Position numbers and translations under genes: made by a program
Notes under the pieces: generated by a model
Databases searched by the model: none
What the model saw: the letters and a program-made list of their open reading frames with translations, nothing else
What the model was told of the DNA's origin: nothing
Part shown: positions 2,108-21,113 of the stretch, one piece after another
Layout: each line of letters opens with the position of its first letter
How positions within the stretch are numbered: position 1 is the stretch's first letter
From: Megamerina dolium
Taxonomy: Eukaryota > Arthropoda > Insecta > Diptera > Megamerinidae
Length of the DNA stretch: 64,000 bases
Reading direction: 5' to 3'
NCBI GenBank assembly: GCA_963854835.1
Contig: OY978528.1
Coordinates: 37,725,757-37,789,756, forward strand

Positions 2108-2505
2108 GGGGTTGAGCAATGTTGGTGTTACAAATTTAACATTTTTATCATTTGTAACACGTTTTTTGAACATTTTTGTTATTTGTAACACGTTTTTTGA
2201 ACATTTTTAGAATTTCTAACACGTTTTTTGAACATTTTTAGAATTTCTAACACGTTTTTTGAACATTTATAAAAATATTAAAAATTTTAGCATTTTTAAC
2301 ATGATTTTTTTATTAAACAGTTGGGTCGAAAATTCCTAACACATATATTAATATTTTTAAAATGTAGTGGCGTACCTCCACACGCCACTAGAATATTATT
2401 ATTCTAACATATTTAAATCTTTTTTTTTGTTATTTTTATAATTAAATAATCTAGGGGCATGTCGCGACACTCCCCTGGAATATCATTATTTTAAAACCTA
2501 ATAAT
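2108..2505 (+). repeat. Maverick left TIR, outer part
   Basis: This is approximately the reverse complement of 18827-19127 plus 21052-21113. Shared blocks include GGGGTTGAGC, GTGTTACAAATTTAACAT, TTATTAAACAGTTGGGTCG and a TCGCGACA core. It contains a 31-bp tandem array (2156-2279), a hairpin with 9-bp arms TAGTGGCGT/ACGCCACTA (2365-2390), and a GGGGCATGTCGCGACACTCCCC block near 2455-2477. The repeat resumes at 5717 after LINE B. Terminal repeats of this class are thought to serve replication initiation and integration. Confidence 0.85.
2156..2279 (+). repeat. 31-bp tandem repeat, four copies
   Basis: AACACGTTTTTTGAACATTT recurs at 2156, 2187, 2218 and 2249, an exact 31-bp period. The intervening 9-11 bases vary slightly in the first and last units. 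It lies inside the left TIR. The right TIR lacks the array because the 1.9-kb repeat sits at the corresponding place. Confidence 0.9.
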
Positions 2506-2662
2506 TTTTTTTTTTTTTTTTTTTTTAACAAGCTTTTTTATTGGATCTTTCTAAAATTACTTAGAAACTAACAATAAGTAATCAAATCTTACAAACTAAA
2601 TAAAATTATGTGATATTCCCAACGTTCCATCACAATTTGTTGAGTCACGAGGTATAGCAATT

Positions 2663-5164
2663 TCACAGCATATTCAGTATGTCTTTTCTTTTTAATCGAC
2701 GATGCCCCGTGCTCAGCAACAATTGCCTAGCAAGGGGATTCGGATGACTGTGTAATTTTTGAATGTAGCTTCTGCAAGACATTGCAACTTCCTCAGAAAT
2801 TGTGGGTACATTTAAATCTCGATGGATGTTAACGTTCCTCATATACCAAGGCGCGTTTACAATAATTCGCAGACATTTGGATTGTATTCGCTGCAATTAT
2901 TCGATATTTGAGGGAGATGCGGTGCCCCAAAACTGAATACCATAAGTCCAGATTGGCTTCAGGATTGCTTTATATAATAGCACTTTGTATTCGAGATTCA
3001 ACTTTGATCGAGGTGAATACCCAAGTACTTTGTCGAGGAACATTGTGGAACTGATTGGCCATTAATTTTAAGTGGGGGACATGTATCTGGCCTTAGCGTG
3101 AAGGTTACATGTACACTCTTTGATTCATTGACTTTTATACGCCATTTTGCTAGCCAGATTTCGAGAGAATCGATATGAGTCTGCAGGAGTTTAGTAGCTT
3201 CTATGGGGTTAGAGCGAGAGCACAATATTGCCGTATCATCAGCTGGGCATATCTGTAGTGTATAAGAGATACAGTAAGGGGCCCAAAACGCTTCCCTGAG
3301 GAACGCCAGCGTGAATATCCAATGGATTTGTTGTGTAATCCTTGTGATGTAAGAGAAATTGTCTTTTCGTGAGGTAGCTACTAAGCAATGAGGAGACATT
3401 TGCAGGCAGTAATAGTTTGAGTTTGTAAATAAGGCCATCGTGCCATACTTTATCGAAAGCTTGAGTGATATCAAGAAAGACAGCTGAGCAATACTTTTTT
3501 TCTTCAAAAGTGTTCCTTATCAGAGTTACAATGCGGTGGACTTGTTCTATTGTGCCGTGCTGTTTTCTAAATCCAAACTGATGTTGAGGAATCAGTTGGT
3601 TGAGATTAATAAATGGAGTTATATTTCGAATACTTGAGAGAGTAGAGGCAGGAGGCTGATAAGTATGTACCTGGTTCCTGGTTCCTGGTTTTGCTATCAT
3701 AATAATTTTGGAAGTTTTCCAGCATTTGGGATAGTGTTTAATACGAAGGATAGCATTGAAAATGTGCATGAGATGAATTACTGAAGCCGGAGGTAGCTCT
3801 TTTATCATTTTACCGGTAATTTTATCTGGACCAGGTAATATTTTGTGTTTAAATCTTTATAAATTGCTTTGAATATGTCCTTTTTTTAATTTTGAGCGTT
3901 ATTGAGCAAGGTTGAGAAGTTAATTTTGGAAATGAGGACTGTGAAGAGGCTGGATTGGGTGTAAACACACTTTTTAGGTGGTTTGCAAAAGCCAAACCCT
4001 TCTCACAGTTGCTTCTAGCCCAATTACCGTCACTCAAACGGATAGGGGAATCAGTGAGAATTGGCCGATTTGAGTTTTTTGCTGATTTCCACAAAGAGTA
4101 GTCTGACGCTTCACCAGGTGTTAATTTCGCTATGTGCTCTTCTAACTCTTTGTTGTTTTTATTTTATAAGGCTTGCTTTAACTTTCGAGTGCAGTGCTGT
4201 AGCTGTGTTTTCAGATTCGGTGATCTGAATTCTTGCCATTGTCTTCGGAGTCTTCTTTTCTGTCTTACTAGCAATTCAATATCGACTGGTGTGTATGGGC
4301 TATAGTTTGATACCTTTGCATACCTTTGTGCAGGTAGCTGAGCTGAGAGCTAATGAGAGCAGCTGGTTGAATTTTTCGAGTGCTGAGTCTACATCGTGTC
4401 CATTTCTTAATACAGTACTCAGAGGAAGATTGGGAATTTATATATTTCTTGAAGTTTAACCAATCTATTTTCTTTCTAACGCAATTGCCTTGGGGGCTTG
4501 GTGATTTTATAGATATTACCGTGGGTGAGTGGTCAGATGATAGATCATAATTACACTCTGAGGAGATATTTTCCATCTGCAAACCTTTGGCGACTCCAAG
4601 GTCTATGAGATCGGGTATTTTCCTCTTGTCCGTCGGCCAATATGTCGGTTGACCATTTGAAATAACATCGTAGCCGTGGTTAGTAATGATTGAACATAGT
4701 CTTATGCCTTTTAGAGTTATTAAGCGGGAGCCCCAGTGAGTGTGTTTGGCGTTGAAATCGCCAGCAACCAAGTATTTGCTACCAAGAGTTGAGAAAAATT
4801 CTTTATATTGCTGTTCGGTAATACTGTATCTTGGGGGACAGTATATCGCAGATATTACTAGCTTAGAGATGTATTCTTCCAGAAATATAGATGTTGCTTG
4901 CAAGTAGACGCTACTGAAATCTTCGAGAACATGATGTTTTATTCTGCTTTTTATCAATATGGCAGTTCCTCCGCGTGCCTTACCATGCGGATGATTTGTG
5001 GTGTACAGTTTGTAATATGGTATTTGGTAGCAATTTTTGTCAGTGAAATGGGTCTCAGATATCATCATTATGTCGATTTGGCTGGATTCAAGGAATTGAA
5101 TTAGCTCCAAACGGTGCTGGCTTAAGCCGTTGGCGTTCCAGTGGCATATCTTGAGACAACTCAT
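2663..5164 (-). pseudogene. LINE B ORF2: endonuclease and reverse transcriptase, broken
   Basis: The N-terminal AP-endonuclease domain begins LKICHWNANGLSQHRLELIQ and has SETH, GDFNAKHTHWGS and DLSSDHSP motifs (5164-4400). The RT domain follows (3808-2998): FGFRKQHGTIEQVHRI, AVFLDITQAFDKVWH, HAGVPQGSVLGPL and then a degraded active-site box reading PADDTAILCS in place of FADDTA. The C-terminal tail with WYMRNVNIHRDLNVPTISEE ends at 2663. No RNase H is present, as is usual for the jockey clade. Function is nicking of target DNA and target-primed reverse transcription. Several frame changes and deletions inactivate it. Confidence 0.85.
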
Positions 5165-5484
5165 GGTCTGGATAGCAATGTTTGGAGTAACATCGATTGA
5201 TTTTTCATCATTTCCTGCATCATTGTTTGCATTGAGTTCATGAATTGGTTCATATTCTGAATTAATGTTTGAAGCAAATGTTCAAGGGTACTTGGCTGTT
5301 GGGTGGGCAGTGAGTGTTTCTGCTCATTATTTACATTGCTTTGTTGGTGTGGGTTTTGTTTTAACACGCTAGCGTATGAATTGGTTTGATTCTTGTTTGG
5401 GATTGCAGAGAAGAATTGTGTTGCATCAATATTTTGTCTCTTACTTGAGTTGGCTATCTGAGTTTGCTCAACTGGTTTTAGAGG

Positions 5485-5706
5485 TTAATTGCTAGCGGAG
5501 AAATTTAGCTTTAGGGTTGTATATACTGGGCAACCTCTATAATTTGCCGTGTGATTACCTCCACAATTGCTGCATTTTTTCATGCTAGCATCGCCTTTAG
5601 ATTTTGGGCATATGTTTGATTTATGGAGATCTCCACAAATCACACAAACAGCTGGCAGGGTACAATATGTCTTAGTATGTCCATATTCTTGGCAGTTACT
5701 GCAGTT
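5485..5706 (-). pseudogene. LINE B ORF1 (gag-like) C-terminal remnant with CCHC knuckles
   Basis: It encodes three zinc-knuckle segments, including CVICGDLHKSNICPKS and CSNCGGNHTANYRGCPVY. These are typical of jockey-clade ORF1 nucleic-acid-binding proteins. It is 5'-truncated exactly at the target-site duplication (5707), so the N-terminal half is absent. Copies C and D supply the missing N-terminal portion for comparison. Confidence 0.85.
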
Positions 5707-5716
5707 ACCTAATAAT

Positions 5717-5757
5717 GATAAAAATATTAAAAATAACTTCTCTAAACATGTGCATGA
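5717..5757 (+). repeat. Maverick left TIR, inner part
   Basis: This continues the inverted repeat after LINE B. The text TAAAAATATTAAAAATAAC followed by TCTAAACATGTG matches the reverse complement of about 18763-18808 with a few changes. It shows that LINE B landed inside the terminal repeat and that the repeat originally exceeded 400 bp. Confidence 0.8.
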
Positions 5758-5759
5758 AA

Positions 5760-5787
5760 GAGACCGTGAACACAGTTCACATGTTTC
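5760..5787. repeat. Hairpin of the GAGAC-GTGAAC type
   Basis: The inverted repeat is GAGAC-c-GTGAAC-aca-GTTCAC-at-GTTTC. The inner 6-bp arms are perfect and the outer arm has one mismatch. The same arrangement recurs at 7010-7039 and, with the arms inverted, at 7100-7125. It lies just inside the left TIR. Confidence 0.7.
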
Positions 5788-5884
5788 CAAAAGAAACCAA
5801 TTACAAAAGCTATCAACAGTAAAGCCCTCAAAAGTGAAAGCACCCTTAAAAAAAATAGTGACTCTTCAAAAGCGACTCTTCAAA

Positions 5885-5955
5885 GTCATTGGTAGAATTC
5901 GAACCCATAAAAACATTGCTTGTTATTGGTTTTCAACTCTTAACCAACTAAGCTA
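5885..5955 (-). other. tRNA-like relic with A and B boxes
   Basis: Read on minus, an A-box-like TAGCTTAGTTGG is followed about 45 bases later by a B-box-like GGGTTCGAATTC, at tRNA-like spacing. A normal cloverleaf cannot be drawn: the anticodon stem and acceptor pairing are poor. It may be a decayed viral-borne tRNA or the head of an unrelated tRNA-derived SINE. It is not the SINE family found elsewhere in the window. Confidence 0.4.
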
Positions 5956-6240
5956 AATATCTTCACCAAATTTAAAGTTGAGTACTTTGTTGAAGTAAAC
6001 AACGTTACTGAATATTAGGCTAAAAATAGATCAAGAATGGCGCACCGGTGAGCCATTTATGTTATCAACCAATTGCTTCACAATTATGTTTTTTTCAGAT
6101 CGACAAAAAATTATTCAACAATTTAGTTAACGGAACCTTACTGATGTTGATTTTTATATGTACCGGCGCGAGTACTTATGTATAAAATAAAAATTTTACT
6201 TAATAAAATGTAATACATATTATAAATATAAAAAATGTCT
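5956..6240. other. Maverick spacer with no recognised gene
   Basis: About 0.3 kb between the tRNA-like relic and the ATPase stop. In Polintons an integrase is often found near one end, but no integrase-like motif was recognised on either strand here. Confidence 0.4.
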
Positions 6241-6241
6241 T

Positions 6242-6840
6242 TTATTCAATTGATTGAAAAAACGTCCTCAAACTTTTTTTATATCTTCCATCATTTGTCG
6301 CTATTTCTTTATCAATAAACATAAAACTAAATTGATCTTTCCATGATTCAATACACATGCTTTTATATAAATTAAAATTAGTATCACCACAGTGGTCATC
6401 AAATACATGGTTTGTATTAGTTTTATTTTGCTTAAATAAAATTATAAAATTACCATTATCTCTAATTATTTGCTTAGGTATTTTGGAATATATTTGACAC
6501 AAATAAAAACAAGAAATATTATTGTGTCTACTATAAGCAAAATAATTGGCAATTTTATTTTGTGGTTCCGTAGAAATGTCATCAAATATTATTACAGTAA
6601 ATGTTTCAACATCTTCAGGACGTGGTAAAGATTCAATTGATAAACATTTAATAATCTTTTGATTTCAAGCTATTGATAGTACAAACTTTATCAAATTGAT
6701 TAATAAAGTTTTTCAAGTATTTATATTTTTCTTGATCACATGTTTTTAAACACATAATAATATTGGAATGATAAATCTTTAATAAGATGTTTAATAATAC
6801 ATTTGTCTCTCCGCAATTACCTGGACCACAAAAAATTCAT
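6242..6840 (-). pseudogene. Maverick DNA-packaging ATPase (A32/FtsK-HerA type), broken
   Basis: The minus strand encodes a Walker A-like FCGPGNCGETN near 6800-6834, a Walker B-like VIIFDD near 6590 and a C-terminal segment KIPKQIIRDNGNFIILF ending at 6242. The order and spacing fit the poxvirus-A32-like packaging ATPases of Polintons and adintoviruses, which pump viral DNA into capsids. The essential Walker A lysine is glutamate in this copy (CGET instead of CGKT). At least two frame changes occur, one near 6655 and one upstream of 6840. The 5' end is degraded. The family call is by motif and neighbourhood. Confidence 0.75.
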
Positions 6841-7009
6841 CTCAAAATATTTGGAAATAATTCATTCAATTGGTTTATTAGTATCAAAATGTTTAATAAT
6901 TAATTTGTTTTTGATATCTAAGGCCTTAGTTCGAATATTACTCATTTATTATATAAACATATTTTTTCATTTGGAGACTATTTAAAGAAGTTAAATATTT
7001 TTCCATTTG

Positions 7010-7039
7010 GAGACGGTTTGATTTTATCAAACATGTCTC
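7010..7039. repeat. Hairpin, GAGAC-GTTTGAT type
   Basis: GAGAC-g-GTTTGAT-ttt-ATCAAAC-at-GTCTC: both the 5-bp outer and 7-bp inner arms are perfect. It lies in the short gap between the minus-strand capsid gene end (7168) and the ATPase start (about 6950), where a terminator or 3'-end signal might be expected. Confidence 0.75.
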
Positions 7040-7099
7040 TGAAATAGTTCACGGTCTATTTACCAGTTCACATATTCCAAAGGAAATGGCTCACAAAGT

Positions 7100-7125
7100 G
7101 AACATGTCTCCTTGGGAGACGGTTC
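7100..7125. repeat. Hairpin, GAAC-GTCTCC type
   Basis: GAAC-at-GTCTCC-ttg-GGAGAC-gg-TTC: the same two sequence blocks as the hairpin at 7010 but with inner and outer arms swapped. Further half-copies with TCAAACATGCATT lie at 7147-7178. Confidence 0.65.
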
Positions 7126-7167
7126 TCGAAGGCAACCATTAGCGAAGTCAAACATGCATTGATGAAG

Positions 7168-7434
7168 TCAAACATGCATTACTTGGTTAGTTAATGGATT
7201 ATATGAATATAAATCATCACTAATAATTAGATAATGTACAATTGTATTAGCTGGGAATTTTTCTGTCCATTTAAACTCAATTTTAATATCAATAGCAGCC
7301 TCTTTAATTACTTTTACTTCATTTTGTTTAGAAGTACCAATGCAAATTATTGGATATTCTTTTAAAAATGTATCATAATTGACTAATGGTAAATTATTAA
7401 CCATAATAAGATTCTTTAAAATCTAGAAACATGT
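7168..7434 (-). pseudogene. Maverick major capsid protein, C-terminal part
   Basis: Encodes YPIICIGTSKQNEV, AAIDIKIEFKW, FPANTIVHYLIISDD and YNPLTNQV, the C-terminal end of an insect Maverick/adintovirus double-jelly-roll capsid protein. It is separated from the rest of the gene by LINE C and is out of frame by one near 7405. Its 5' edge is the LINE target-site duplication at 7435-7443. Capsid identity comes from resemblance to insect Maverick capsid-like proteins as I know them, and from position next to the ATPase. Confidence 0.65.
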
Positions 7435-7445
7435 TGTATAAAATA

Positions 7446-7477
7446 CTTTTTCGCTTTACTATAGTAAAGCGAAAAAG
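7446..7477. repeat. Perfect 32-bp palindrome at the LINE C 5' junction
   Basis: Two 16-bp arms with no spacer: CTTTTTCGCTTTACTA followed by TAGTAAAGCGAAAAAG. It starts two bases after the target-site duplication. The right arm runs into LINE sequence; the left arm appears to be its inverted copy. Confidence 0.9.
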
Positions 7478-7500
7478 AAGTCCCCAAAATTCAAAACAAA

Positions 7501-8285
7501 TGAATTCAACAAAAATTCAGAGGCAGAACACTAGCCCTATTAGTTCGGAAAATAGATACGCACTGCTTTCAAGTGATGAAAGTGACGAAAATATTATCCC
7601 CAAGAAAAATTTCAGATAAGTTGATTTCCAGAATAACAAGCCTTATAGGACCAAAAATTTCAACGTTGTTCCTATTCGCAAAGGCAAAATTGAGGAAACG
7701 AAAGTACAAATCTATAGCGAAACTCATTATCGCAAAGTAATTGCAGAATTTGATGCTGGAAAAAAGAATTACTATACATATCAATTAAAAAGTACTAAGA
7801 GCTTAATCGTTGTACTCAAAGGCGTCAAACCCAACGTTGATATTAACGAAATTAAACTTGCCCTTCAGGAAGAGGGATTTCAAGCCAAAACAGTATTCAG
7901 CATTTTCAACAAGAGCAATATACCTGAACCGTTATATCGCATTGAGCTTCAACCTGAAACAAAAACCCTAAAAAAGGTGAAATTCGATATTTATTGCATC
8001 GCAAAAACACAACCCCATAAGAGAACTGGATCTCCTCAGTGCAGCAACTGCCAAGAATCAAACCAATTCATACGCTAGTGTTTTAAAACAAAACTCACAC
8101 CAACAAAGCAATGAAAATAATGAGGAGAAGCACTCACTGCCCACCCAACAGCCAAGTAACCTTGAACATTTGCTCCAAACACTAATGCAGATCATGAACC
8201 AATTCATGAACTCAATGCAAACAATGATGCAAGAAATGATGAAAAATCAATCGATGTTACTCCAAACATTGCTATCCAGACCATA
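7501..8285 (+). pseudogene. LINE C ORF1 (gag-like), broken
   Basis: It starts at ATG 7501 with a Ser-rich N-terminus reading SSENRYALLSSDESDENI. Shifted frames continue through a middle region (homologous to 36417-36037 in copy D, with QIYSETHYRKVIAEFDA) that resembles the PRE_C2HC domain of jockey-type gag proteins. The expected CCHC knuckles are missing between about 8050 and 8060. Its end is Met/Gln-rich (NQFMNSMQTMMQEMMK) just before ORF2. The product would bind element RNA. Confidence 0.75.
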
Positions 8286-10801
8286 AATACCATAAGTCGT
8301 CTCAAGATATGCCACTGCAACGCCAACGGCTTAAGCCAGCACCGTTTGGAGCTAATTCAATTCCTTCCTTGATGATATCTGAGACCCATTTCACTGACAA
8401 AAATTGCTACCGAATATCACATTACAAACTGTATACCACAAATCATTCGCATGGTAAGGCACGCGGAGGAACTGCCATATTGATAAAAAGCATAATAAAG
8501 CATCATGTTCTCGAAGATTTCAGTAGAGTCTACTTGCAAGCAACATCTATACGCCTGGAAGAGTACATCTCTAAGCTAGTAATATCTCCTATATACTGTC
8601 CCCCAAGGTACAGTATTACCGAACAGCAATATACAGAATTTTTCTCAACTCTTCGTAACAAATTCTTGGTTACTGGCGATTTCAACGCCAAACACACTCA
8701 CTGGAGCTCCCGCTTAATAACTCCAAAAGTCAGAACACTATGCTCAATCATTATTATTAAATGGTCAATCGACATATTGACCGACGGACAAGAGGAAGAT
8801 ACCCGATCTCATAGACTTTGGAGTCACCAAAGGTTTGCAGATGGAAAATATCTCCACAGAGTGTAATAATGATCTCTCATCTGATCACTCACCCACGGTA
8901 ATATCTATAAAATCACCAAGCCCCCAAGGTAATTGCGTTAGAAAGAAAATAGACTGGTTGAAATTCAAGAAATATCTAAATTCCCATCTTCCTCTAAGAA
9001 CTGTATTAAGAAATGGACAAGATGTAGACTCAGCACTAGAAAAATTCAACCAGTTGCTCTCATTAGCTCTCAGCTCAGCCACCTGCACAAGGGTATACAA
9101 ACAATCAAACTATAGCCGATACACACCAGCCGACATTGAATTGCTAGTAAGACAGAAAAGAGGACTCCGAAGGCAATGGCAAGAATTCAGATCACCGAAT
9201 CTGAAAACACAGCTACAGCACTGCACTCGAAAGTTGAAGCAAGCCCTAACAAATAAAAACAACAAAGAGTTGGAAGATCACATAGAAAATTAGCACCTGG
9301 CGAAGCGTCAGACTACTTTTTGAGTGACCCATCCGTTTGAGTGACGGTAATTGGGCTAGAAGCAATTATGAGAAGGCTGTGGCTTTTGCAAACCACTTAA
9401 AAAGTGTGTTTACACCCAATCCACCCTCTACACATTCCTCATTACCAAAATTAATTTCTCAACCTTGCTCAATAACGCTCAAAATTAAAAAAAGTACATA
9501 TTCAAAGCAATTTATAAAGATATAAACCCAAAAAATTCACCTGGCCCAGATAAAATTACCGGTAAAATTATAAAAGGGCTACCTCCGGTTTCAGTTATTC
9601 ATCTCATGCACATTTTCAATGCTATCCTTCGTATTAAACACTATCCCAAATGCTGGAAAACTTCCAAAATTATTATGATAGCAAAACCAGGAACCAGGAA
9701 CCAGGTACAGACTTATCAGCCTCCTGCCTCTACTCTCTCAAGTATTCGAAAAGCTACTTGTCATGAATATAACTCCATTTATTAATCTCAATCAACTGAT
9801 TCCCCAACATTAGTTTGGATTTAGAAAATAGCACGGCATAATAGAGCAAGTTCACCGCATTGTAACTCTGATAAGGAACATTTTTGAAGAAAAAAGTATT
9901 GCTTAGCTGTCTTTCTTGATATTACTCAAGCTTTCGATAAAATATGGCACGATGGCCTTATTTACAAATTCAAACTATTACTGCCTGCAAATGTTTCCTC
10001 ATTGCTTACTAGCTATCTCACGAAAATACAATTTCTCGTACATCACAAGGATTACACAACAAATCCATTGGATATTCACGCTGGTGTTCCTTAAGGAAGC
10101 ATTTTGGGCCCCTTACTGTATATCTTATACACTGCAGATATGCCCAACAATAACTATACATTCATATCGACCTTTGTTGATGATACGGCGGCAATATTGT
10201 GCTCTCGCTCATGTCGATTCTATCGAAATCTGGTTAGCAAAATGGCGCATAAAAGTCAATGAATCAAAGAGCGTACACATAATCTTCACACTAAGGCTAG
10301 ATACATGTCCCCCACTTAAAATAAATGGCCATGGTTCCACAATGCTCCTCAATATGGGGTATTTACCTCGACAGAAGGCTGACCAGGAACAATCACATAG
10401 AGGCAAAGAAAACTCAGATTAAGCTTAAAATTAATCAGTTATGGTGGCTGCTACACAAAAGCTCAATACAAGGTCTATTATATAAAGCAATCCTGAAACC
10501 AAACTGGACTTATGGTATTCAGTTATGGGGCACCGTATCTCCCTCAAATATCGAAAAATTGCAGCGAATACAATCCAAGTGCCTGCGAATTATTGTAAAC
10601 GCGCCTTGGTATATGAGGAACGTTAACATCCATCGAGATTTGAATGTACCCACAATTTCTGAGGAAGTTGCAAAGTCCTGCAGAAGCTACATTCAAAAAT
10701 TACACAACCATCCGAATACCCTTGCTAGGCAATTGTTGCTGAGCACAGGCCATCGACGACTAAAAAGAAATGATACACTGAATACGCTGTGTAATTACTA
10801 A
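8286..10801 (+). pseudogene. LINE C ORF2: endonuclease and reverse transcriptase, broken
   Basis: Endonuclease pieces occur at 8309-9293 (ISETHFTDKNCYRI, GDFNAKHTHWSS, DLSSDHSP), RT pieces at 9560-10330 and the C-terminal tail at 10325-10801. A stop or frame change occurs near 8860, 9300, 9530, 9700, 9900 and 10100. The active-site box region around 10170 reads FVDDTAA rather than FADDTA. It is non-functional, and the order is the same as copies B and D. Confidence 0.85.
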
Positions 10802-10928
10802 ACCTCGCGACTCAACAAATTGTGATTGAACAACGGGAATATCACATAATTTTAAGTTAGTTTGTAAGATTTGAATACTTATTGTGAGTTTCTACGAACA
10901 AAAACAAACAAACAAAAAATGTATAAAA

Positions 10929-11720
10929 AATCAAATTTCTTATGGTTAAATGATAATTGCATTTCATAATTTGAATATCTAACTGTATTCAATTTAACTA
11001 CTAAATTTTCTAAATTACAATGATCAAATTTACTATTATCTTTAAAAAAATTTTGATTTCTCAATGTTTGGAATGCTATCGAAAAATATCTTGGTTTAGA
11101 ACTATTCCAAGAATAATTATTTACTGGAGGAAATGCAGTTGTACAACAATATCTCCAATTTCTAAAGTGCATTTTAAAGTTTGTGTTATTTGAAATATTT
11201 TTATTAATCTCGTGGTCAACTTCAATAGGAAATTTAACATGTGGCATTCTCCACATTATTTAATTAATTTTAATAGAAAAGGTATGACCATTTAAACTAT
11301 TATCAACATTTAAGCAATTTGAATCATCATTTTATATAATTAATTCTAATTTTTGATTAATTCTGAAAATAATATTTTTGTAGTCTTCGAAGAATCATAT
11401 TAATATATATAATGGAATACTAACAGAAAAATATAATTTTTTATTAAAAGCGTTACCTTTATTTACAATTTGCACCCAGCATTATTGAATTATTAGAAAA
11501 TGATGCTAATCCTTTAATTGATGTTGTTAAACCAGGATTTTCTATTTGATCAATTTCCATTGTTAATGGAAATTGATCAAATTAATTACCATTGTTAACA
11601 AAGTTAATTAAGATCGGATTAATATTTTCCACAATTTTACCATCTTTATCTTTTGCAGTAATTTGTCCTCTAACAACAAGTAAACTTTTATATGGTAATG
11701 TTTTAATATCTTGATTTTTA
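10929..11720 (-). pseudogene. Maverick major capsid protein, central part
   Basis: Between the solo LTR (ending at 11725) and LINE C (starting at 10919), the minus strand encodes LPYKSLLVVRGQITAKDK near 11695-11640 and WRMPHVKFPIEVDHE near 11254. It then reads MHFRNWRYCC, KPRYFSIAFQTLRNQNF and SKFDHCNLENLVVKLN. These are the conserved central blocks of insect Maverick-type capsid proteins. The stretch 11257-11600 is degraded and carries a foldback (11544-11582). The ORF at 10879-11256 runs a few codons into the LINE. Confidence 0.72.
11544..11582. repeat. 18-bp-arm foldback inside the capsid gene
   Basis: ATTTGATCAATTTCCATT, a 3-base loop (GTT), then AATGGAAATTGATCAAAT: perfect complementarity over 18 bp. 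It sits inside former coding sequence, so it is more likely a local snap-back duplication than a regulatory site. Confidence 0.85.
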
Positions 11721-11724
11721 ATAT

Positions 11725-11985
11725 TGTTACGTTTTTATTCTGTGAGTGTTTAATTCTATTTGAATTACCTTGTTCGATCACTGGATTGATTCTCACTTCT
11801 CAACACTGGCTCTATTTATACTCTGTTGGCAACACCCCAGAATCTTCCTTTATCGAGATTCTTCTCTTTCTTTCTCGTTGGCTTGTTCTGGTTATTACTT
11901 ATTTCTTTTTGTTGACATTCGTTTCGATGCTGCCAATAGTGTCAGTCCAATAGTGATGAGTAACCAACTATCGATATTCGTTACA
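11725..11985 (-). mobile_element. Solo LTR (261 bp) in the capsid gene
   Basis: The segment has TG...CA ends (TGTTAC at 11725, GTTACA at 11980) and a 4-bp ATAT duplication (11721-11724, 11986-11989). Base composition is more GC-rich than the surrounding viral DNA. On the minus strand there is a TATA box (GAGTATAAATAGAGCC, about 11811-11826) and an AATAAA near 11735. These features suit an LTR of a gypsy-type retrotransposon left after LTR-LTR recombination. The family is not identified, and no internal region is present. Confidence 0.72.
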
Positions 11986-11989
11986 ATAT

Positions 11990-12086
11990 TTTTTTCTATT
12001 GGTCTACCATTGTCATTTAAAAGAGTAGAATTGGATGGTAAATGTTCATAAAAATCATAAGATTCTATACCTTTTACTTCCATCAT
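11990..12086 (-). pseudogene. Maverick major capsid protein, N-terminal end
   Basis: The minus frame from ATG 12086 reads ESYDFYEHLPSNSTLLND and then SWLLI where the LTR begins. It has the length, position and flavour of the capsid N-terminus that leads into the first jelly-roll strands at 11695. The three capsid pieces (here, 10929-11720, 7168-7434) sum to about 1.15 kb of coding sequence. Confidence 0.55.
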
Positions 12087-13568: not shown

Positions 13569-14034
13569 AGCCGCATTCTTTTGTAACCGAGTTGCAGAAG
13601 AACACCAACTCGCATTTAATTTCCCTTTTACTTGAATATAATTTCCCTTTAGTTACTTAGCAATGCTGATGTTATATATGGTTGTTCGTGAAATTTATAA
13701 ACGAAATAAAAACACAAAAGAAACAATTTTGCGGAATCTGTGGTAAATATATTCGTTTATTTAAAATAAATTTTTATTTGCACTTGCTTTATTTTGCTTA
13801 TTTTTGTTCATATTTACAGTAATTTGACGTGTTGTTGAAATTTCCCAGTAGTCTATTCACAATAGTGCTTTTTTTTTACTTTCAAACACTATAACTCAGG
13901 TCGATTAAAATATAAGCAACTTCAATTGAACTCGGTTAAAATATACTATGTCGTTTATTTTTGTTGTTGCTTTGCATGCAGTTCTGCAAATAAGTCAGTG
14001 TTCTTTTGCAACTCGCGTGCGAAAGAATGCGGCT
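13569..14034 (+). mobile_element. MITE copy 1 (466 bp) inside a Maverick gene
   Basis: Imperfect terminal inverted repeats of about 45 bp: AGCCGCATTCTTTTGTAACC at the left and the reverse complement of GTGCGAAAGAATGCGGCT at the right. The inner parts hold GAAGAACACCAACTCGC and its counterpart. The same element occurs at 29954-32204, where it is split by another repeat. No ORF is present, so it is non-autonomous. The target-site duplication could not be settled, leaving the superfamily open. Confidence 0.85.
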
Positions 14035-14430
14035 GTTAAAACAATTAAAAGAAAGTTTTTATCGATTTGATCCAAATTCTCCTAATAAAAATTTATTAGG
14101 AGAAAACTATTCAATTTTATTTAGAGGTAAATTACCTATAGCTTTATTTAATCTTCTTTAATCTTTAATCTAATAAAGTAAGAAGTGTTAGTGAAGAACA
14201 CAGAAGTAGTTCTTCACCATTCCTCATAGATGGGTATAATAAAAGTAAATTAAAATTAAAAAATTTGAAAAGAGCTAGAAAAATTAAATATTGATTCAAA
14301 ATTAATCACTGGTGAAAATGGTATAGAACATTACGAAATAAAACAAAAAATAAAGCTTTAATTAATAATTTACAAAATAAAATATCAAGTATAAAAAAAA
14401 GTTGAATCTTAAAAGTTAAAGTATATTAAT
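14035..14430 (+). pseudogene. Maverick right-arm hypothetical gene, 3' piece
   Basis: Plus-strand frames read FYRFDPNSPNKNLLGENYSI, then KLKLKNLKRARK and Lys-rich remnants to about 14430, with stops and frame changes. A small foldback with 11-bp arms, CTCCTAATAAA/TTTATTAGGAG, lies at 14079-14102. Function unknown. Confidence 0.45.
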
Positions 14431-14463
14431 TTAATAAGCAGTCAACTTTTTTAGTTAAATAAA

Positions 14464-14988
14464 TGATATTATAAACAGTTTTATAAATCATCTTCCATTT
14501 GAATTACATAGTCCTGGTTATAATTATTTAGGACCAGATACTAATTTACATTTGAAAAAAGAACAAGGTATTCAACCAATTAATAAATCAGATGAAGCTG
14601 CTAAAGAACACGATATTGCATATTCAAAAAGTAATGATTTAAATAAAAGACATGAAGCTGATGAGATTTTATAAAATAAAGCATGGTCAAGAGTTTTAGC
14701 AAAAGATGCTAGTTTATCAGAAAAAGTAAATCCTTATTTAGCAACAAATGCAATGAAATTTAAGAGGAAAATGAGAATGGGACTTTATAATCAAAATAAT
14801 ATTAATCAAAATGAAAATAATAATGAAATTTCTTTTATTCAAAAATGTGGAAGGTATAATAAACATCCAATATCTCTAAATGAAGATCAACAAAAACAAA
14901 TTCATGATGCAATGAAAAATAAAAGAGATATAACTATAAAATTAGAAGTAATTCAATTACAAAGAACAAAAGAAAGTATAATGAATTA
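14464..14988 (+). pseudogene. Maverick PLA2-domain protein (parvovirus-VP1-like phospholipase), broken
   Basis: The frame reads HSPGYNYLGPDTNLHLKK and DEAAKEHDIAYSKS. This is the calcium-loop and catalytic His-Asp arrangement of the secreted-type phospholipase A2 domains of parvovirus VP1 and of adintovirus capsid-associated proteins. The family's calcium loop is YxGPG, whereas this copy reads YLGPD. A TAA interrupts the frame at about 14672. The rest (14753-14986, opening MKFKRKMRMG) continues in the same gene with a basic tail. In related viruses the enzyme helps breach endosomal membrane. Confidence 0.72.
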
Positions 14989-14989
14989 A

Positions 14990-15345
14990 ACATATTTACC
15001 ACTAACTGAAAAAAAAAATTAAATCCATCAAAAAGAATGCGAACATTAATACTATTTTTATTTTAAAATTATCTAAATCTCAATTGCAAAGTTTTAATAA
15101 TGAAAAGATTGGTGGGTTTTTACCAGCATTATTACCACTTATTCCAGCAATAGGAGCTGTAGTTACTGTTGGTACTTCATTATATAAAGCTTATAGTGAT
15201 AAAAAGACTAATGATAAATTACTAGAAGAAAAAATTCGTCATAATAAAGCATTAGAAGAACAAAATGTAAAAGGTGGTAATGGATTACTTCTTAAAAATC
15301 TGGTAATGGTCTACTACTTAAAAAAAATGATTTTGGATTGATTCC
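14990..15345 (+). pseudogene. Maverick pX/Mu-like membrane-active minor capsid protein
   Basis: A hydrophobic segment, GGFLPALLPLIPAIGAVVTV, is followed by a charged helix reading YKAYSDKKTNDKLLEEKIRH. This combination is found in adenovirus pX/protein-VI-like proteins encoded beside the protease in Polintons and adintoviruses. The upstream part (14993-15080) has stops. The downstream end (GNGLLLKN, then a duplicated GNGLLLK) runs into the protease region. It is probably a core or membrane-lytic virion component. The identification is by pattern and neighbours. Confidence 0.6.
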
Positions 15346-15627
15346 TATTAAACCATTAAGTAATCATGATTAAAAAAAATGCTGGCAAATTCAATATTCC
15401 AAATTTTATAGGTGTTTTTATGAAAGATAGGTCACCAAAAAAGATAAAAGATATAGAATGTGGAATAATAAATTTAGATAATAATGATGGTAATGGTACT
15501 CATTGGGTAGCATATAAAAATACTAATAATTATATTGTATATTATGATTCATTTGCTTTAAATAAATTACCTATATTAGTTGAAGAATATTTTAAAACTG
15601 AAAATACAATTAAAAAGATAAATAATT
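15346..15627 (+). pseudogene. Maverick adenain-like cysteine protease, truncated by a SINE
   Basis: It encodes KFNIPNFIGVFMKD, then GTHWVAYKN (the catalytic His context) and IVYYDSFALNKLP (the Asp/Asn context), as in adenovirus-type Ulp1-like maturation proteases. The expected C-terminal CG nucleophile block is absent because the SINE at 15628 interrupts the gene and nothing recognisable follows. The protease would process virion precursors. Confidence 0.75.
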
Positions 15628-15911
15628 ATGTGATATTTAAAGACCCGAAGGGCTCATTGGCCGAGCTTCTCTTCCATTACTGTTGTGCGCGTTAAATTTT
15701 GGATAGTATTAGAAGGGATCTGTACTTATTTTAGCCGGTTCCGAACGGCAGAACTCTTGTGACATCACTTTTTCTGAGCTTTGTCACAGAGTTCTTTTAG
15801 AATTGCCAATTGCTTGCCGACAGGTGGGTATGAGCCGGGGGATTGAACCACGAACCACGACCTACAGATCAGAAGGCCAACACACTAACCACCAGTAACT
15901 AACGGCACCCA
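15628..15911 (-). mobile_element. tRNA-derived SINE in the Maverick protease gene
   Basis: Minus orientation. The tRNA-like head (15850-15911) has a damaged A box, reading TTAGTTACTGGTGGTTAG. The B-box region has a duplicated GTGGTTC tract (GTCGTGGTTCGTGGTTCAATCC). The body, with CTGTGACAAAGCTCAG, GCCGTTCGGAACCGGCT and GGAAGAGAAGCTCGGCC, is the same as the SINEs at 39433 and 51418. The 3' end at 15628-15650 reaches into what looks like protease reading frame. Confidence 0.85.
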
Positions 15912-15923
15912 CCAGTAAATATA

Positions 15924-16171
15924 ATGAATGTTAATTCAATTAGAATAAAATGTAATATTGCATCTGGTAGTTATGAGAATAATAAACAAATAAATATTAT
16001 TCATAAATTTTTTATAAAATAAATGAGATACCAAGAAATTTAATTTAGTATCCTATAAATACAAATGCAATATAAAATATAAATATTCAAATTGTTGATC
16101 AAGACAATAATTTAATTGAATATAGAAATGGAAAAATTAGTATTAGATTAAACGTTCGTGAAGTGAACTGA
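15924..16171 (+). pseudogene. Maverick minor-capsid-like small protein
   Basis: ATG 15924 gives VNSIRIKCNIASGSYENN, stopping at a TAA near 16020. A second part in a shifted frame reads IQIVDQDNNLIEYRNGKISI and ends near 16171. The terminal strand pattern (DQ-N-LI-FRNG-ISIRL) is what I know from small structural proteins downstream of the protease in insect Mavericks. Which capsid part it corresponds to is uncertain. Confidence 0.5.
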
Positions 16172-16281
16172 TAATCTTATTTGACTTTTGTCAAACGATT
16201 TTCTTCAAAAATATAACTAGTGAAACGATTCGTTATTGGTATCGAAGGAAAAAGATTTAAAAAATAAAGTGAAAAGTTAAA

Positions 16282-16608
16282 ATGGGAGAAGTTCCACAAA
16301 AACAAAGATTGTGTCATCATATAGTTAATGGTGTAAAAATTTTATTAACTCCAATGGATGGTAAAAAAAAATATGCTTTTCATGTTTACAAGAAAAAGAC
16401 ATAAATGAATATAATACAGTTCGACCTGGATATTGTAATGAATGTTTTAAGGAAAAATATAATTATCGTAATAAATTACCATAAAAAAATAAAAGGATTG
16501 TATGTGAGTGTGGTAAAGAAATTCTTCAGAGACACAAAAAGCGACATCTTAATAGCATAACTCATGAAATTAAGGAAAATATTGAAAATTTATCAATAAA
16601 TGTGTAAA
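16282..16608 (+). pseudogene. Maverick zinc-finger protein, frameshifted
   Basis: ATG 16282 (MGEVPQKQRLCHHIVNGVKI) enters a stop near 16404. Overlapping frames continue with GYCNECFKEKYNYRN and CECGKEILQRHKKRHLNSIT. The paired Cys followed by spaced His residues looks like a zinc-binding finger or ribbon. It is likely a DNA- or RNA-binding regulatory product, but the function is unknown. Confidence 0.5.
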
Positions 16609-16716
16609 TATTTTTTTAAACTTTAAGCATTATAAATCAACACATTCAAGTATTTAAATAAAGTATGAGGAGAACGAAATTAATGAAGAAATTTTTTCTA
16701 TAATAAATAAAGAAAA

Positions 16717-18762
16717 ATGAATCCAATGAACATAAAAGGTTTAAAAACAAAAACTTTAAAAAACCTTAAAAAATGTGTTAGAGAAAATAAACATATTTTT
16801 TAGTTCCGAAATACTGGTATAACAAAAATAAAATTGGTTTATTAGGATTAGTAAAAAAAAGAAGCTAAAAAATATAACAAAAAAATTATTCTAGATATAA
16901 TTCAAAATTTTGATGATTATGATTTTAATTTTGATTATTTAGTTACGGATAATTTATATGAAAATGGTGAATTACAAAAAAAAAAAGATATGGTAATTTA
17001 GTAGCAGATATTGAATTCAAAAATAATGAAAAATTGGATATTACATCACATCTAAGTTTATTAAAGAACAAATGTTATTCTTACTTTGACAAAGGTATTA
17101 AAAAATATAGCGTAACAAAAATTAAATGTCTTTTTGGTATCGGTCTAAGACACATGACATTAATAAAATCAATTTTAAAGACAAATTTGATATCATGATC
17201 GATCAACTATGTAACAGTTTTTATGGAATTAATAAACAAGGAAGGGGATGGGAGTTTGTAAAAATAGTAAAAACAATTGCTTCGAGAGATGAAAGTCAGC
17301 CTATTTCAGGTGGGCCATATATTCCATTCACAAATAAAAATTGTATACTATTGTATGTTATATTGTATCTTATATTCTATAACCAAAATGAAATAACTAA
17401 AGATCCACAAAGACCAACTAAATATAAAAAATATCTTGAAGACATATTAAATTATGAAAATTTTAAAAACTTAAATATAACTTATCCATTTGAAGTTAAT
17501 AAAGAAAATGTTAAGAAATTAGAAGACAATTTTACTATTACAATTAACTTTTATTATTTCAATCCTGAAGAAAAAGATACAATTGAACAAATTCAATTAC
17601 TATATAAAAGTAAATCTTTTAATGTTAATAATGTTAAATCTCATTTTATAGTTATTAAAAATAGTTATTAAAAAATTATTAATCAAAATGAGTATTTACA
17701 TATTTCTTATAAATGTTTTAGGAAATGTAAATCTTTAAATGAATTAGAAGAACATAAAAAAATATAGAGTTACCTAAAGAAGGTCAAAACATTTTAGAAT
17801 ATAAATTAAATGGTGCAGAATTCTCCATATGTTTTATATGCTGATTTTGAATCTACTCTCAAAAAGATTAATAATAAGAAATCAGAAATATGTGAGACAA
17901 TATTACTCAATTAACATATTCCGAATAGTTTTGAAATTTATTGTAATTGTAAAGTGAACATGTTTCTGAAGGTAGTGGTTCGCTTCGCGAACATACGAAA
18001 AAGTATTTTTCAGCAGTAAAACCTAAAAAGGTTTAATTAAAGTATTTTTGATCAGATATTACAACATGCTAAAGAATAGTAGAATAATTCAAGATAAAGA
18101 ATCTGTACTAAAGTTTGAAAATACTAAAAACTGCGAAATTTGTAATATTGAGTTTATCGATTTGATTGAAAAATGTTGGGATTATGATAACGTAACTGGT
18201 AAATATAGAATGGCTTTATGCAATAAATGTAATCTAAATTTGAAAATGCCTAAATTTTTACCAATAATTATTTTATTAAAATATTTAGATTCAGTTTATC
18301 CACAAACAGAAACTACTCTAATAGCTACACGTAGAGACAAATTTAGACAAATTAGAAAGAAAGTAATAGTAGGTGAATATTAGTAAAAAAGATTATAAAT
18401 TTGCAAAGAAATTTTGGAATCATTTTAACTGTAACACATTTAAAGATTATCACGAATGGTATTTAAAATTAGATGTTATTTTGTTATCAGATATTTATAA
18501 TAATTTTAGAGAAATGTGTTTTGAAATTTATTAATTAGATCCTGTTTATTTCAACAGCAGTAAAATTTCCTAAACAAAAATTAGAATTATTAACTAATCA
18601 AGATCAGTATGAATATAAAGAAAATGGAATTAGAAGTGGAATATCTCAAATATCACGTAATTATGCTAAAGCAAATAATTGCTATTATTACTATGATGTT
18701 ATGGAACAAGTTTATAAATTAAGTAAAGAGAAGCTGAAAGTAAAAGAATATATGATGTGCTT
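16717..18762 (+). pseudogene. Maverick protein-primed DNA polymerase B, N-terminal half, heavily broken
   Basis: Recognisable pieces run in order. The longest intact stretch, 17126-17671, has QGRGWEFVKIVK and PYIPFTNKNC. Near 17816-17866 is SPYVLYADFESTLKK, the exonuclease-I D-x-E motif. At 18120-18380 is CEIC...GKYRMALCNKCNLN followed by MPKFLP. At 18395-18680 are KDYHEWYLKLDVILLSDIY and GIRSGISQISRNYAKANN. Frames change repeatedly. The sequence runs into the right TIR before the palm motifs (the DTDS-type metal-binding box), so the polymerase half is lost. The intact enzyme would replicate the linear viral genome from a terminal protein. Confidence 0.78.
17954..17994. repeat. GTGAACATGTTTC block with adjacent GGTTCGC hairpin
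   Basis: GTGAACATGTTTC is followed 8 bases later by GTGGTTCGC-ttc-GCGAACATAC. It repeats the sequence blocks of the hairpins at 5760, 7010 and 7100, here inside the PolB remnant. Confidence 0.55.
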
Positions 18763-19127
18763 TCAGACACATGTTTAGAGCAGTTATTTTTAATACTTTT
18801 AGCATTATTAGGTTTCAAAATAATGATATTCCAGGGGAGTGTCGCGACATGCCAATAGAATATTATTATTCTAACATTTTTATCAATATTTAATTATAAA
18901 AATGACAAAAAAATAGATTTAAATATGTTAGAATAATAATACCGTACCACCACACGCCACTACATTTTAAACATATTAATATAAACTACAAAAAAAAAAG
19001 AAAACTTGGGCCAATTGATTAGCGTATTAGTTTTTTGGACATTCTAAAAAAATAAAATAAATGTTTTAAAATGAAAGCACTGTCTTTGTGTTAGGATTTT
19101 TCGACCCAACTGTTTAATAAAAAATGG
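18763..19127 (-). repeat. Maverick right TIR, inner part
   Basis: Reverse complement of the left repeat: AACAGTTGGGTCGAAAAATC, the CGTGTGGTGG...ACGCC hairpin region, the TCGCGACA core (18841-18848), CCTAATAATGCTAAAAGTAT and AAACATGTG. It is interrupted at 19128 by the 1.9-kb repeat and resumes at 21052. Confidence 0.82.
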
Positions 19128-21051
19128 CCTTACAGTCGGCTGGGGCCGACCAAATTATATCCTGCATATGTAGAGGTATATATAAAAAGTTTGCTCGTAT
19201 ATCCATCCCGTTTTTCCACTACTTTGTATAGGAGCTACATTAAGAAGCAGGCGTTCCTCACCAATTTTTGAGGAACAATTTCTGCCTATAATACTAAACT
19301 ACCTAAGTTGCAATGGGTTGACCTAGGCGTATTATTTAGTAAGTTATGGGTGTTTTAATGTTTAAGATAAATCCGAGACTTTGGGCGTGGCTTATCTCTG
19401 TGTTGTACATCTAATTAATTTTTCAATATCAATCCACACCTTAAATATGGTTGTCCTACGCTGAATAGTTCATAAGTTATGGCGGTTAACATTTTTGTTT
19501 AATTTCCTCAACTTTGTATGGGAGCCCCAATAAGAAGTGTGCATGGCACACTGATTTTCTGCCGCATTATTTTTGACTATCATATTAATCTAAGTGTCAA
19601 TTATGGTTATTCTACCCGAAGATTGCCGAAGTTACAGCTGTTTCAATTTAAAAGAATTTCAGTCATTTTGTGTGCGGGCTACAATAAACAATGAGCGTGG
19701 CGCGCCCATTTCCTGTGAGGCTAGTTGCTCGTACAATACTAATCCACACCTTAAATCTCGTTATTCTACGCTGAATAGTTTGCAAGTTATAACCGGTAAC
19801 ATTTTTTTTTAATTTCCGCAACTTTGTATGGGAGCCCCAATAATAAGTGGGCATGGTACGCTGATTTTTTGCCAGATTATTTCCAACTACGATATTAAGC
19901 TAAGTGTCAATTATTCTAGACAGAAGTTTGCCGAAGTCACGGCTGTTTCAATTTAAAAGAAATTCGGTCATTTTGTATGGGGGCTATAATAAGCAGTGGG
20001 CGTGGCGCGCACATTTCCAGTGAGTCTAGTTGATCTTACAATACTAATCCATACCTTCAATCTCGTTATTCTACGCTAAATGCTTTGTAAGTTATGGAGC
20101 TTAACAGTTTTAGTTTAATTCCCTCGACTTTGTATGGGAGACCCATGAAGGAGTGGGCGTGACACACTGATTTTCTGTCATATTATTTCCGACTGCCATG
20201 TTAATCTAAGTGTGAATTATGGTTATTCTGGACAGAAGATTGTCGAAGTTACAGCTGTTTCAATTTAAAATTTGTATGGGGGCTACGATAAACAGTGGGC
20301 GTGGTGCGCCCATTTCCTGTGAGCCTAGTTGCTCGTACAATACTAATCCACACCTTAAATCTCGTTATTCTACGCTGAATAGTTTGCAAGTTATAACCGG
20401 TAACATTTTTTTTAATTTCCGCAACTTTGTATGGGAGACCCAAAAAGCAGTGGGCGTGGCACACTGATTTTCCGCCAGATTATTTTTGACTACCATATTA
20501 ATCGAAGTGTCAATTATGGTTATTCTGGACAGAAGATTGTAGAAGTTACAGCTGTTTCAATTTAAAAGAAGTACAGACACTTTGTATGAGAGCTACGCTA
20601 AAAAGTAGGCGTGGCTCACCCACTTTTGGCGAGATTATATAGTAGTATAATATAAGTCTATGTGCCAAATATTGTTGTCCCAAGTCGTATATTATGTGAG
20701 TTATAGCAAGTTAAAGATTTTGAAAATTTCGAGGTTAGTCGCTTTGAATGCTTGGTGTGGGCGTGGTTATTGACCGATTATGCCCAATATCTTTCCCCTC
20801 CGTACCCTTGGATCATAGATTACTTATGCCAAATTTCATCGAAATAGCTCAATATTTACTCAAGTTATCGTGCGAACCAGCCAGGTGACAGACAGACGGA
20901 CGGACGGACGGACATCGTTAAATCGAAAATTTAATCGACGCTGATCACGAATATATATTTATGTCTATATCTCCGGAGATTCCTTCAAGTGGACACAAAC
21001 ATCTGACCGAAATGAATATACCATGCATATTGCATTATGCAGGGTATAAAA
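19128..21051 (+). mobile_element. Unclassified interspersed repeat copy 1 (about 1.9 kb) with internal subrepeats
   Basis: It starts CCTTACAGTCGGCTGGGGCC and ends TTATGCAGGGTATAAA. A subterminal inverted repeat TTATACCCTGCATA/TATGCAGGGTATAA is near-perfect in copy 2. The interior holds dimeric units of about 305 bp. GGGCGTGG-type boxes recur about every 150 bp (19996, 20151, 20296, 20449, 20604). Near the right end is a (GACG)n tract and a GTTAAATCGAAAATTTAATC block. No credible protein is encoded; short ORFs are repeat shadows. A second copy lies at 30108. It is probably a non-autonomous transposon of uncertain class. Confidence 0.8.
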
Positions 21052-21113
21052 ATTCGTGATATGATAAACATGTTAAATTTGTAACACTAATATTGAGATT
21101 GCGCTCAACCCCG
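21052..21113 (-). repeat. Maverick right TIR, outer tip
   Basis: Reverse complement reads GGGGTTGAGC, then GTGTTACAAATTTAACAT and GTTTATCAT, matching 2108-2151. The extreme tip could extend to about 21129, where AGTATG on the minus strand resembles a Polinton-like terminus. No paired target-site duplication was identified. Confidence 0.7.

What the first reader, a model, noticed from the sequence alone, without database searches (positions are those of the whole stretch)
2108..21113. A fossil Maverick/adintovirus provirus inside a fly Rbp6 intron, buried under six later insertions
Terminal inverted repeats and an ordered set of viral genes (ATPase, capsid, PLA2, pX-like, protease, minor capsid, PolB) are recoverable once LINE B, LINE C, a solo LTR, a MITE, a SINE and a 1.9-kb repeat are mentally removed. 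Automated annotation would see only scattered short ORFs. The presence of TIR parts, capsid pieces and PolB pieces is seen directly. The family assignment rests on known Polinton/adintovirus gene sets.
Basis: partly seen in the sequence, partly recalled or inferred. Interest (0 to 1): 0.88.

Follow-up and report, generated by a model that had tools for sequence, protein, structure and literature searches.

The report
Fossil insect Maverick provirus, nested insertions
A long-dead DNA virus of the Maverick (adintovirus) kind lies in what looks like a fly genome, missing key genes and broken up by later jumping-gene insertions; such fossils are known, so this is a clear but fairly ordinary example.

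Summary
Inverted terminal repeats enclose about 9.4 kb of viral DNA, diluted to 19 kb by six inserts. Four collinear TIR blocks score 136 to 51 bits; the best of 200 shuffles scores 36. Profiles find an A32-type packaging ATPase (27 relatives, best hit 63% identical), a double-jelly-roll capsid in two pieces and a PLA2 domain. PolB is supported by four collinear pieces, each beating 1000 shuffles against one PolB-like IMG/VR frame, two of them narrowly and one partly by selection. Two LINEs have clean target duplications, in the left TIR and in the capsid gene. Corrections: PolB stops just before its catalytic motif, close to the right TIR, and no integrase was detected in the 134 small frames scanned, although the integrase model works. 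So this is an internally deleted, dead derivative of an insect Maverick/adintovirus, not a complete gene set. Protease and minor capsid rest on recalled motifs. One Musashi/Rbp6-type exon fits the intron claim without proving it. It is a new member of a known kind; insect and fly Mavericks and adintoviruses are in print.

The parts
2100..2105 (.). candidate left target-site duplication GCTATA (partner 21127-21132)
   Evidence: Read from sequence. A shared stretch of 7 bp or more occurs near random position pairs in 1.5% of 20000 draws, so suggestive only
2106..2505 (+). left TIR, outer part (31-bp tandem units at 2138-2268)
2506..5706 (-). LINE B, a non-LTR retrotransposon inserted in the left TIR; 10-bp duplication ACCTAATAAT at 2496-2505 and 5707-5716
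   Evidence: sister copy 32770-35940, 94.8%; Exo_endo_phos E=3e-17, RVT_1 E=2.5e-18; duplication
5707..5760 (+). left TIR, inner part
   Evidence: matches 18760-18813 inverted, 91%, E=3.5e-16
6245..6945 (-). A32/FtsK-type packaging ATPase in three frame pieces (6865-6945, 6651-6836, 6245-6664); frameshifted, Walker A lysine lost
   Evidence: PF04665 E=1.2e-5 for 6245-6664; 27 of 30 candidates E<=0.01, best 1.5e-49; alignment A1; 6865-6945 matched by eye only, no Pfam hit
7171..7422 (-). major capsid protein, C-terminal piece (second jelly roll)
   Evidence: PF21738 E=1.2e-8, profile 254-314 of 316
7444..10919 (+). LINE C, inserted in the capsid gene; 9-bp duplication TGTATAAAA at 7435-7443 and 10920-10928
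   Evidence: 87.5% to LINE B; Exo_endo_phos E=2.2e-8; duplication
10882..11259 (-). major capsid protein, middle piece (its low end runs into LINE C's tail)
   Evidence: PF21738 E=2.7e-16, profile 122-241 of 316
11585..12086 (-). probable N-terminal pieces of the capsid gene (11585-11734, 11898-12086), interrupted by the solo LTR
   Evidence: position and strand; no profile hit; recalled motif resemblance
11725..11985 (.). solo LTR, TGTTACG...CGTTACA, with 4-bp ATAT repeats at its flanks
   Evidence: read from sequence; no second copy in the window; weak because the repeat is short
13569..14034 (.). MITE with 37-bp terminal inverted repeats; no clear duplication found
   Evidence: arms 86% complementary, related pieces at 29952-30104 and 31897-32204
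14459..14986 (+). PLA2-domain virion protein ('CAP'/VP1-like), two pieces
   Evidence: PF08398 E=2.2e-13 for 14459-14671; 14675-14986 no Pfam hit
15006..15338 (+). pX-like virion protein
   Evidence: PF05829 E=3e-4, 21.0 bits, below the 25-bit cut-off
15360..15604 (+). adenain-like cysteine protease, N-terminal part only
   Evidence: recalled motif THW...YYDSF; no credible Pfam or PDB match
15605..15924 (-). tRNA-like SINE (by eye) cutting the protease; no clear duplication
   Evidence: copies at 39421-39801, 51416-51738, 29622-29755; Rfam gathering scan of the window found nothing
15925..16168 (+). probable C-terminal remains of the minor capsid (penton) protein
   Evidence: recalled motifs only (frames)
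17126..18724 (+). PolB remains: N-terminal frame 17126-17668 (by position only), ExoI 17810-17911, Zn/EndoVII-like 18027-18380, then 18373-18531 and 18539-18724; truncated before palm motif A
   Evidence: four pieces each beat 1000 of 1000 shuffles against the L089 frame, in order; PF02945 E=3.4e-6 and phrog_2633 endonuclease VII E=6.2e-6. 17126-17668 gave no match (744 of 1000 shuffles as good)
18760..19124 (-). right TIR, inner part; uninterrupted where LINE B sits in the left TIR
19125..21052 (.). 1.9-kb repeat with about four 310-bp tandem units; DINE-1/Helitron-like by its features
   Evidence: sister copy 30100-31900, 88-89%; TRF; GACGGAC-rich stretch like the GTCY protosatellite in PMC3630058 (passages)
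21053..21126 (-). right TIR, outer end
   Evidence: 35-bp match to 2117-2151, 91%, E=1.4e-8
21127..21132 (.). candidate right target-site duplication GCTATA

Best explanation
It is the dead, internally deleted remains of an insect Maverick/adintovirus, a virus-like self-synthesising DNA element. The ancestor carried TIRs, a double-jelly-roll capsid, a packaging ATPase, a PLA2 virion protein and a type B DNA polymerase. It most likely entered this locus by its own or a relative's retrovirus-type integrase (inferred; no integrase gene was detected). It then lost the PolB catalytic half, took frameshifts and stops, and was hit by LINE B, LINE C, a solo LTR, a MITE, a SINE and a DINE-1-like repeat. 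Shown: TIRs, capsid, ATPase, PLA2, the LINE insertions with their duplications, and, with less margin, the exonuclease-side pieces of PolB. Inferred: mode of entry, protease, penton, order of decay. It does nothing now that this evidence can show.
For: TIR blocks 136 to 51 bits against a shuffle maximum of 36. PF21738 twice, PF04665 and PF08398. Twenty-seven ATPase relatives, the top hit 63% identical over 92%, aligned. Four PolB pieces collinear with L089 residues 81-105, 175-275, 376-423 and 457-499. Endonuclease VII hits in the PolB zinc region, as reported for Sf Maverick PolB (PMC5803895 Table 3). LINE duplications of 10 and 9 bp; the right TIR shows the unfilled site for LINE B.
Against: No integrase among 134 small frames. 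No PolB palm motifs seen. Capsid, PLA2 and PolB pieces found no relatives in the scans tried, and neither the ATPase piece nor its alignment found any in IMG/VR or, for the alignment, GTDB contigs. PolB rests on one comparison sequence; two of its four pieces beat the best shuffle only by 60 to 56 and 63 to 60, and L089 was itself picked by a motif pattern lying in the 18373-18531 piece. Protease and penton lack any profile match. The target-site duplication is only suggestive.
Confidence: 0.93

Rival explanations
1. The element was already deleted when it integrated: a defective, helper-dependent Maverick with TIRs and virion genes but without a working PolB and integrase, mobilised in trans.
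For: The parts missing or undetected include the replication and integration genes (PolB catalytic half, integrase), while both TIRs survive. The PolB match runs to about 36 bp from the right TIR. The core is 9.4 kb against 13.3-14.6 kb for Drosophila-associated adintoviruses (PMC8363768).
Against: Protease and penton are apparently cut too, and PolB carries a second internal loss, as expected of plain decay. Only one copy could be examined.
Confidence: 0.12
2. An endogenous bidnavirus or parvovirus-like sequence rather than a Maverick.
For: Bidnaviruses carry a related PolB and long TIRs (PMC4061559, passages); the PLA2 domain is parvovirus-like.
Against: A double-jelly-roll capsid and an A32 ATPase are foreign to bidnaviruses and parvoviruses (established knowledge).
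Confidence: 0.02
3. A chance patchwork of unrelated repeats and viral gene scraps, with no single ancestral element.
For: The region is AT-rich, heavily interrupted and full of repeats.
Against: The viral pieces lie between matching TIRs, inserts with sister copies sit in the gaps, and PolB pieces are collinear.
Confidence: 0.02

Closest known systems
Sf Maverick 1 and 2 of Spodoptera frugiperda cells (PMC5803895; passages and section 11 part 1 of 2 read)
   Same: A32-type ATPase, PLA2-bearing CAP, protease, PolB with an endonuclease VII-like region
   Different: Theirs are described as apparently intact with integrase, with eight small ORFs in tandem on one strand; here ATPase and capsid lie on the strand opposite to PLA2, protease and PolB, no integrase was detected and the PolB catalytic half is absent
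Drosophila-associated adintoviruses 1-3 (PMC8363768; passages read)
   Same: Fly-associated; capsid, protease, FtsK ATPase and PolB reported for the first of them
   Different: 13.3-14.6 kb and complete or near-complete; this core is about 9.4 kb and broken. Their sequences were not compared here
Vertebrate Maverick fossils (PMC8097293; passages read)
   Same: Mostly degraded copies; TIRs of intact elements average 402 bp (about 450 bp here)
   Different: Vertebrate hosts; different module arrangement
Alpha adintoviruses such as that of the Mayetiola barley midge (PMC11071296; passages read)
   Same: PolB plus hexon plan, dipteran reference
   Different: Defined by OTU-like PolB N-terminus and integrase with chromodomain, neither shown here
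Adintovirus-derived elements in Ixodes ticks (PMC10675110; passages read)
   Same: Endogenous adintovirus remains in an arthropod
   Different: Those 453 are derived from integrase sequences, the one core gene not detected here

Membership tests
Maverick/Polinton | Terminal inverted repeats | tested here: met
Maverick/Polinton | 6-bp target-site duplication | tested here: inconclusive
   GCTATA at 2100-2105 and 21127-21132; a match of 7 bp or more of this kind has about 1.5% chance
Maverick/Polinton | Type B DNA polymerase gene | tested here: met
   Exonuclease-side remains only; the catalytic palm half is missing and protein priming is not testable
Maverick/Polinton | Retrovirus-type (rve) integrase | tested here: not met
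   None in 134 of the 190 frames of 27 aa or more listed, nor in the 11 of them scanned; control IS2 transposase hits rve at 8.6e-19. Short broken frames limit sensitivity
Maverick/Polinton | A32/FtsK packaging ATPase | tested here: met
Maverick/Polinton | Double-jelly-roll major capsid protein | tested here: met
   PF21738 in two pieces
Maverick/Polinton | Adenain-like protease | tested here: inconclusive
   Recalled motif only; no credible Pfam or PDB hit. Sf Maverick PRO also scores only E=6.1 and 0.58 in CDD
Maverick/Polinton | Minor capsid (penton) protein | tested here: inconclusive
   Recalled motifs at 15925-16168; no profile hit among the frames
Adintovirus | PolB with N-terminal OTU-like domain | not tested
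   17126-17668 sits in the right place, gave no Pfam hit, and no OTU comparison was made
Adintovirus | Integrase with C-terminal chromodomain | tested here: not met
Adintovirus | Hexon recognisable by BLASTp against reference adintoviruses | not tested
   No reference adintovirus sequence was at hand; one search found no relatives of the capsid piece

The most novel reading that the evidence does not exclude
The locus preserves a helper-dependent Maverick: an element that integrated already lacking the PolB catalytic half and integrase but keeping TIRs and virion genes, and whose late genes shared a common start-site leader (an exact 19-mer ending in TAAATGA at the capsid and PLA2 gene starts).
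Probability: 0.1. Interest if true: 0.55.

Novelty: new member of a known kind. Interest (0 to 1): 0.33.

Why it matters
It gives a layered fossil: an old viral integration whose TIR copies can be compared with each other, later inserts on top with readable borders, and a case where short-frame annotation would probably miss the virus. It adds to the record of Mavericks in what looks like a fly genome and is a usable locus for orthology dating. It does not change what is known about the group.

Tried and rejected
Relatives: viral-contig scans with capsid, PolB, PLA2 and ATPase pieces and the ATPase alignment gave no confirmed locus; genome contigs with the ATPase alignment likewise. The pattern scan returned 88 stretches (80 listed); none showed a convincing PolB frame, and two (L011, L022) matched the ExoI piece only over 14 residues at E=0.011. 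A stricter PolB pattern gave 0 and a third gave one, L089. Protein searches: capsid piece none, PolB piece none at E<=0.01, ATPase 27.

Pfam and PolB: no PolB family was reported for the window pieces, but neither was one for the L089 frame with clear PolB motifs, so this silence says nothing.

Control comparison: of the 24 window pieces compared with L089, four PolB pieces beat all 1000 shuffles, two of them by narrow margins (60 against 56, 63 against 60; the others 120 against 55 and 72 against 61). L089 was found with a pattern covering a 13-residue motif of the 18373-18531 piece, so that piece's match is partly by selection. The remaining 20 did not beat all shuffles, including the assumed PolB frames 16971, 17126 and 17672; one non-PolB piece (11898-12086) was matched by only 2 of 1000, which is not unusual among 20.

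TIR divergence: 19 differences in 269 aligned sites of six chosen tight blocks, K2P 0.074. Choosing tight blocks biases this down, gene conversion could reset it, and no calibrated rate was looked up, so no date is claimed.

The bidnavirus reading was rejected on capsid and ATPase.
Full report
What was checked. The finding says that 2108-21113 holds a fossil Maverick/adintovirus under six inserts. I tested the ends, the genes, the inserts and the surroundings separately, searching the genes piece by piece.

Ends. BLAST of 1500-6000 against the reverse complement of 18500-22000 gives four blocks in collinear inverted order: 2117-2151/21061-21095, 2306-2343/19087-19124, 2344-2505/18804-18983 and 5707-5760/18760-18813. 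Bit scores are 50.9, 65.3, 136 and 76.1; in 200 dinucleotide shuffles of the TIR parts the best single block averaged 23.0 and reached 35.6. The left copy is split by LINE B and the right copy by the 1.9-kb repeat. Outside the last block both ends carry GGGGTTGAG in inverted form. The sequence GCTATA flanks 2106 and 21126; a match at least as long as the underlying 7-mer turned up in 1.5% of 20000 random position pairs, so the 6-bp duplication expected of Mavericks (PMC8097293, passages) is suggestive, not shown.

Genes. On the minus strand, 6245-6664 hits Pox_A32 (E=1.2e-5) and has 27 relatives at E<=0.01 among 30 candidates, best E=1.5e-49 at 63% identity. The alignment shows that the gene is frameshifted between 6651-6836 and 6245-6664 and that the Walker A lysine is lost. 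Also on the minus strand, 10882-11259 and 7171-7422 hit the double-jelly-roll family at profile positions 122-241 and 254-314 (E=2.7e-16 and 1.2e-8): one capsid gene with LINE C between its pieces. On the plus strand, 14459-14671 hits Phospholip_A2_4 (E=2.2e-13) and 15006-15338 hits Adeno_PX weakly (E=3e-4, below cut-off). Insect Mavericks with a PLA2 'CAP' protein are published (PMC5803895). The protease (15360-15604) and penton remains (15925-16168) are read from recalled motifs only.

PolB. Pfam reports no PolB family for the pieces, but it reports none for L089 either, an IMG/VR frame of 929 codons with obvious PolB motifs, so the library is uninformative here. Against L089, window pieces 17810-17911, 18027-18380, 18373-18531 and 18539-18775 each beat all of 1000 shuffles, at L089 residues 81-105, 175-275, 376-423 and 457-499 in that order; the 20 other pieces tested did not. 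Limits: two margins are narrow (60 against a shuffle best of 56, 63 against 60), and L089 was picked with a motif pattern that lies in the 18373-18531 piece, so its strong score (120 against 55; 46% identity over 48 residues) is partly by selection. The collinear order of four pieces is what carries the case, together with endonuclease VII profile hits in the second piece (E=3.4e-6; E=6.2e-6), a domain also reported in Sf Maverick PolB. Roughly 85-100 residues are missing between the second and third pieces relative to L089, and the match ends at about 18724, just before the L089 motif A (DANNLYG). The right TIR begins at 18760.

Integrase. Of 190 frames of at least 27 aa in 5700-7560 and 10880-19130, 134 were scanned and 11 more; 19 overlapping the MITE or SINE and 26 others, mostly short or overlapping frames, were dropped (recount). 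None of the 134 hit an integrase family at E<=0.01; two unrelated weak hits appeared (best E=0.0022). LINE B, LINE C and 19131-21126 were not scanned for it. The model is present and works: E. coli IS2 gives E=8.6e-19. Broken short frames limit this test, so 'not detected' is the fair word.

Inserts. LINE B (minus strand, 2506-5706) has a 10-bp duplication ACCTAATAAT; the right TIR shows the same site unfilled. LINE C (plus strand, 7444-10919) has a 9-bp duplication TGTATAAAA. Both carry endonuclease domains and LINE B a reverse transcriptase hit. LINE B is 94.8% identical to a copy at 32770-35940; LINE C is about 87% to both. The LTR (11725-11985) is read from its TGTTACG...CGTTACA ends and ATAT flanks. 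The MITE, SINE and 1.9-kb repeat all have sister copies in the window, but no clear duplications. The 1.9-kb repeat has 310-bp tandem units and a GACGGAC-rich stretch, features like the DINE-1-type Helitrons described in Calliphora vicina (PMC3630058, passages). Taking lengths only, the element is 19,021 bp, of which the six inserts are 9,653 bp, leaving 9,368 bp. Drosophila-associated adintoviruses are 13.3-14.6 kb (PMC8363768, passages). The lost PolB half, integrase and protease/penton stretch would roughly cover that gap (inference).

Surroundings. The only host exon seen is a 32-residue RRM piece at 38448-38543 minus, flanked by splice-like signals; it hits RRM_1 (E=8.5e-5), and among PDB chains hnRNP A1 (best, 1.3e-10) and Musashi-1 (5.8e-9). 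Its Rbp6 identity is recalled. The element lies 17 kb 3' of it on the exon's strand, compatible with an intron.

Interpretation. The evidence fits one integration of an insect Maverick/adintovirus, now dead. Membership as a complete Maverick fails on the integrase; descent from one is well supported by TIRs, capsid, ATPase, PLA2 and PolB together. Whether the deletion came before or after integration cannot be told from one copy, because the genome search did not complete. Eight paper searches were run; most lists were capped, and no listed title or abstract start names this locus, so I make no claim of absence beyond that. They show that insect and fly Mavericks and adintoviruses, including a stable-fly Maverick PolB in a figure legend, are known. 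The paper that proposed the adintoviruses (Starrett et al.) is not held and was not read.

Noticed in passing
12083-12101 (-), 14448-14466 (+), and about 6945 (-): An exact 19-mer TTTTTAGTTAAATAAATGA lies at the inferred capsid start and at the PLA2 gene start on opposite strands; the ATPase start also sits in AATAAATGA, which occurs four times in the stretches counted. It resembles a shared late-gene leader (poxvirus late TAAATG is recalled). With up to 3 mismatches 3 matches were found against 0.47 expected; 2 of 100 shuffles reached 3.
   Followed up: partly
29948-32207: Another copy of the MITE appears split by another copy of the 1.9-kb DINE-1-like repeat.
   Followed up: no
38448-38543 (-): Single Musashi/Rbp6-type RRM exon with splice-like borders.
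   Followed up: partly
1-64000, frame not resolved: Among 43 frames (39 of the 55 listed outside the element, three inside LINE B or C, and the RRM exon), transposase families Transposase_1 (2 members) and DDE_3 (1) were hit, so a mariner-type element probably lies in the window.
   Followed up: no
L089 (IMG/VR contig 3300007522_001028): A 929-codon PolB-like frame that draws no PolB hit from this Pfam copy.
   Followed up: partly
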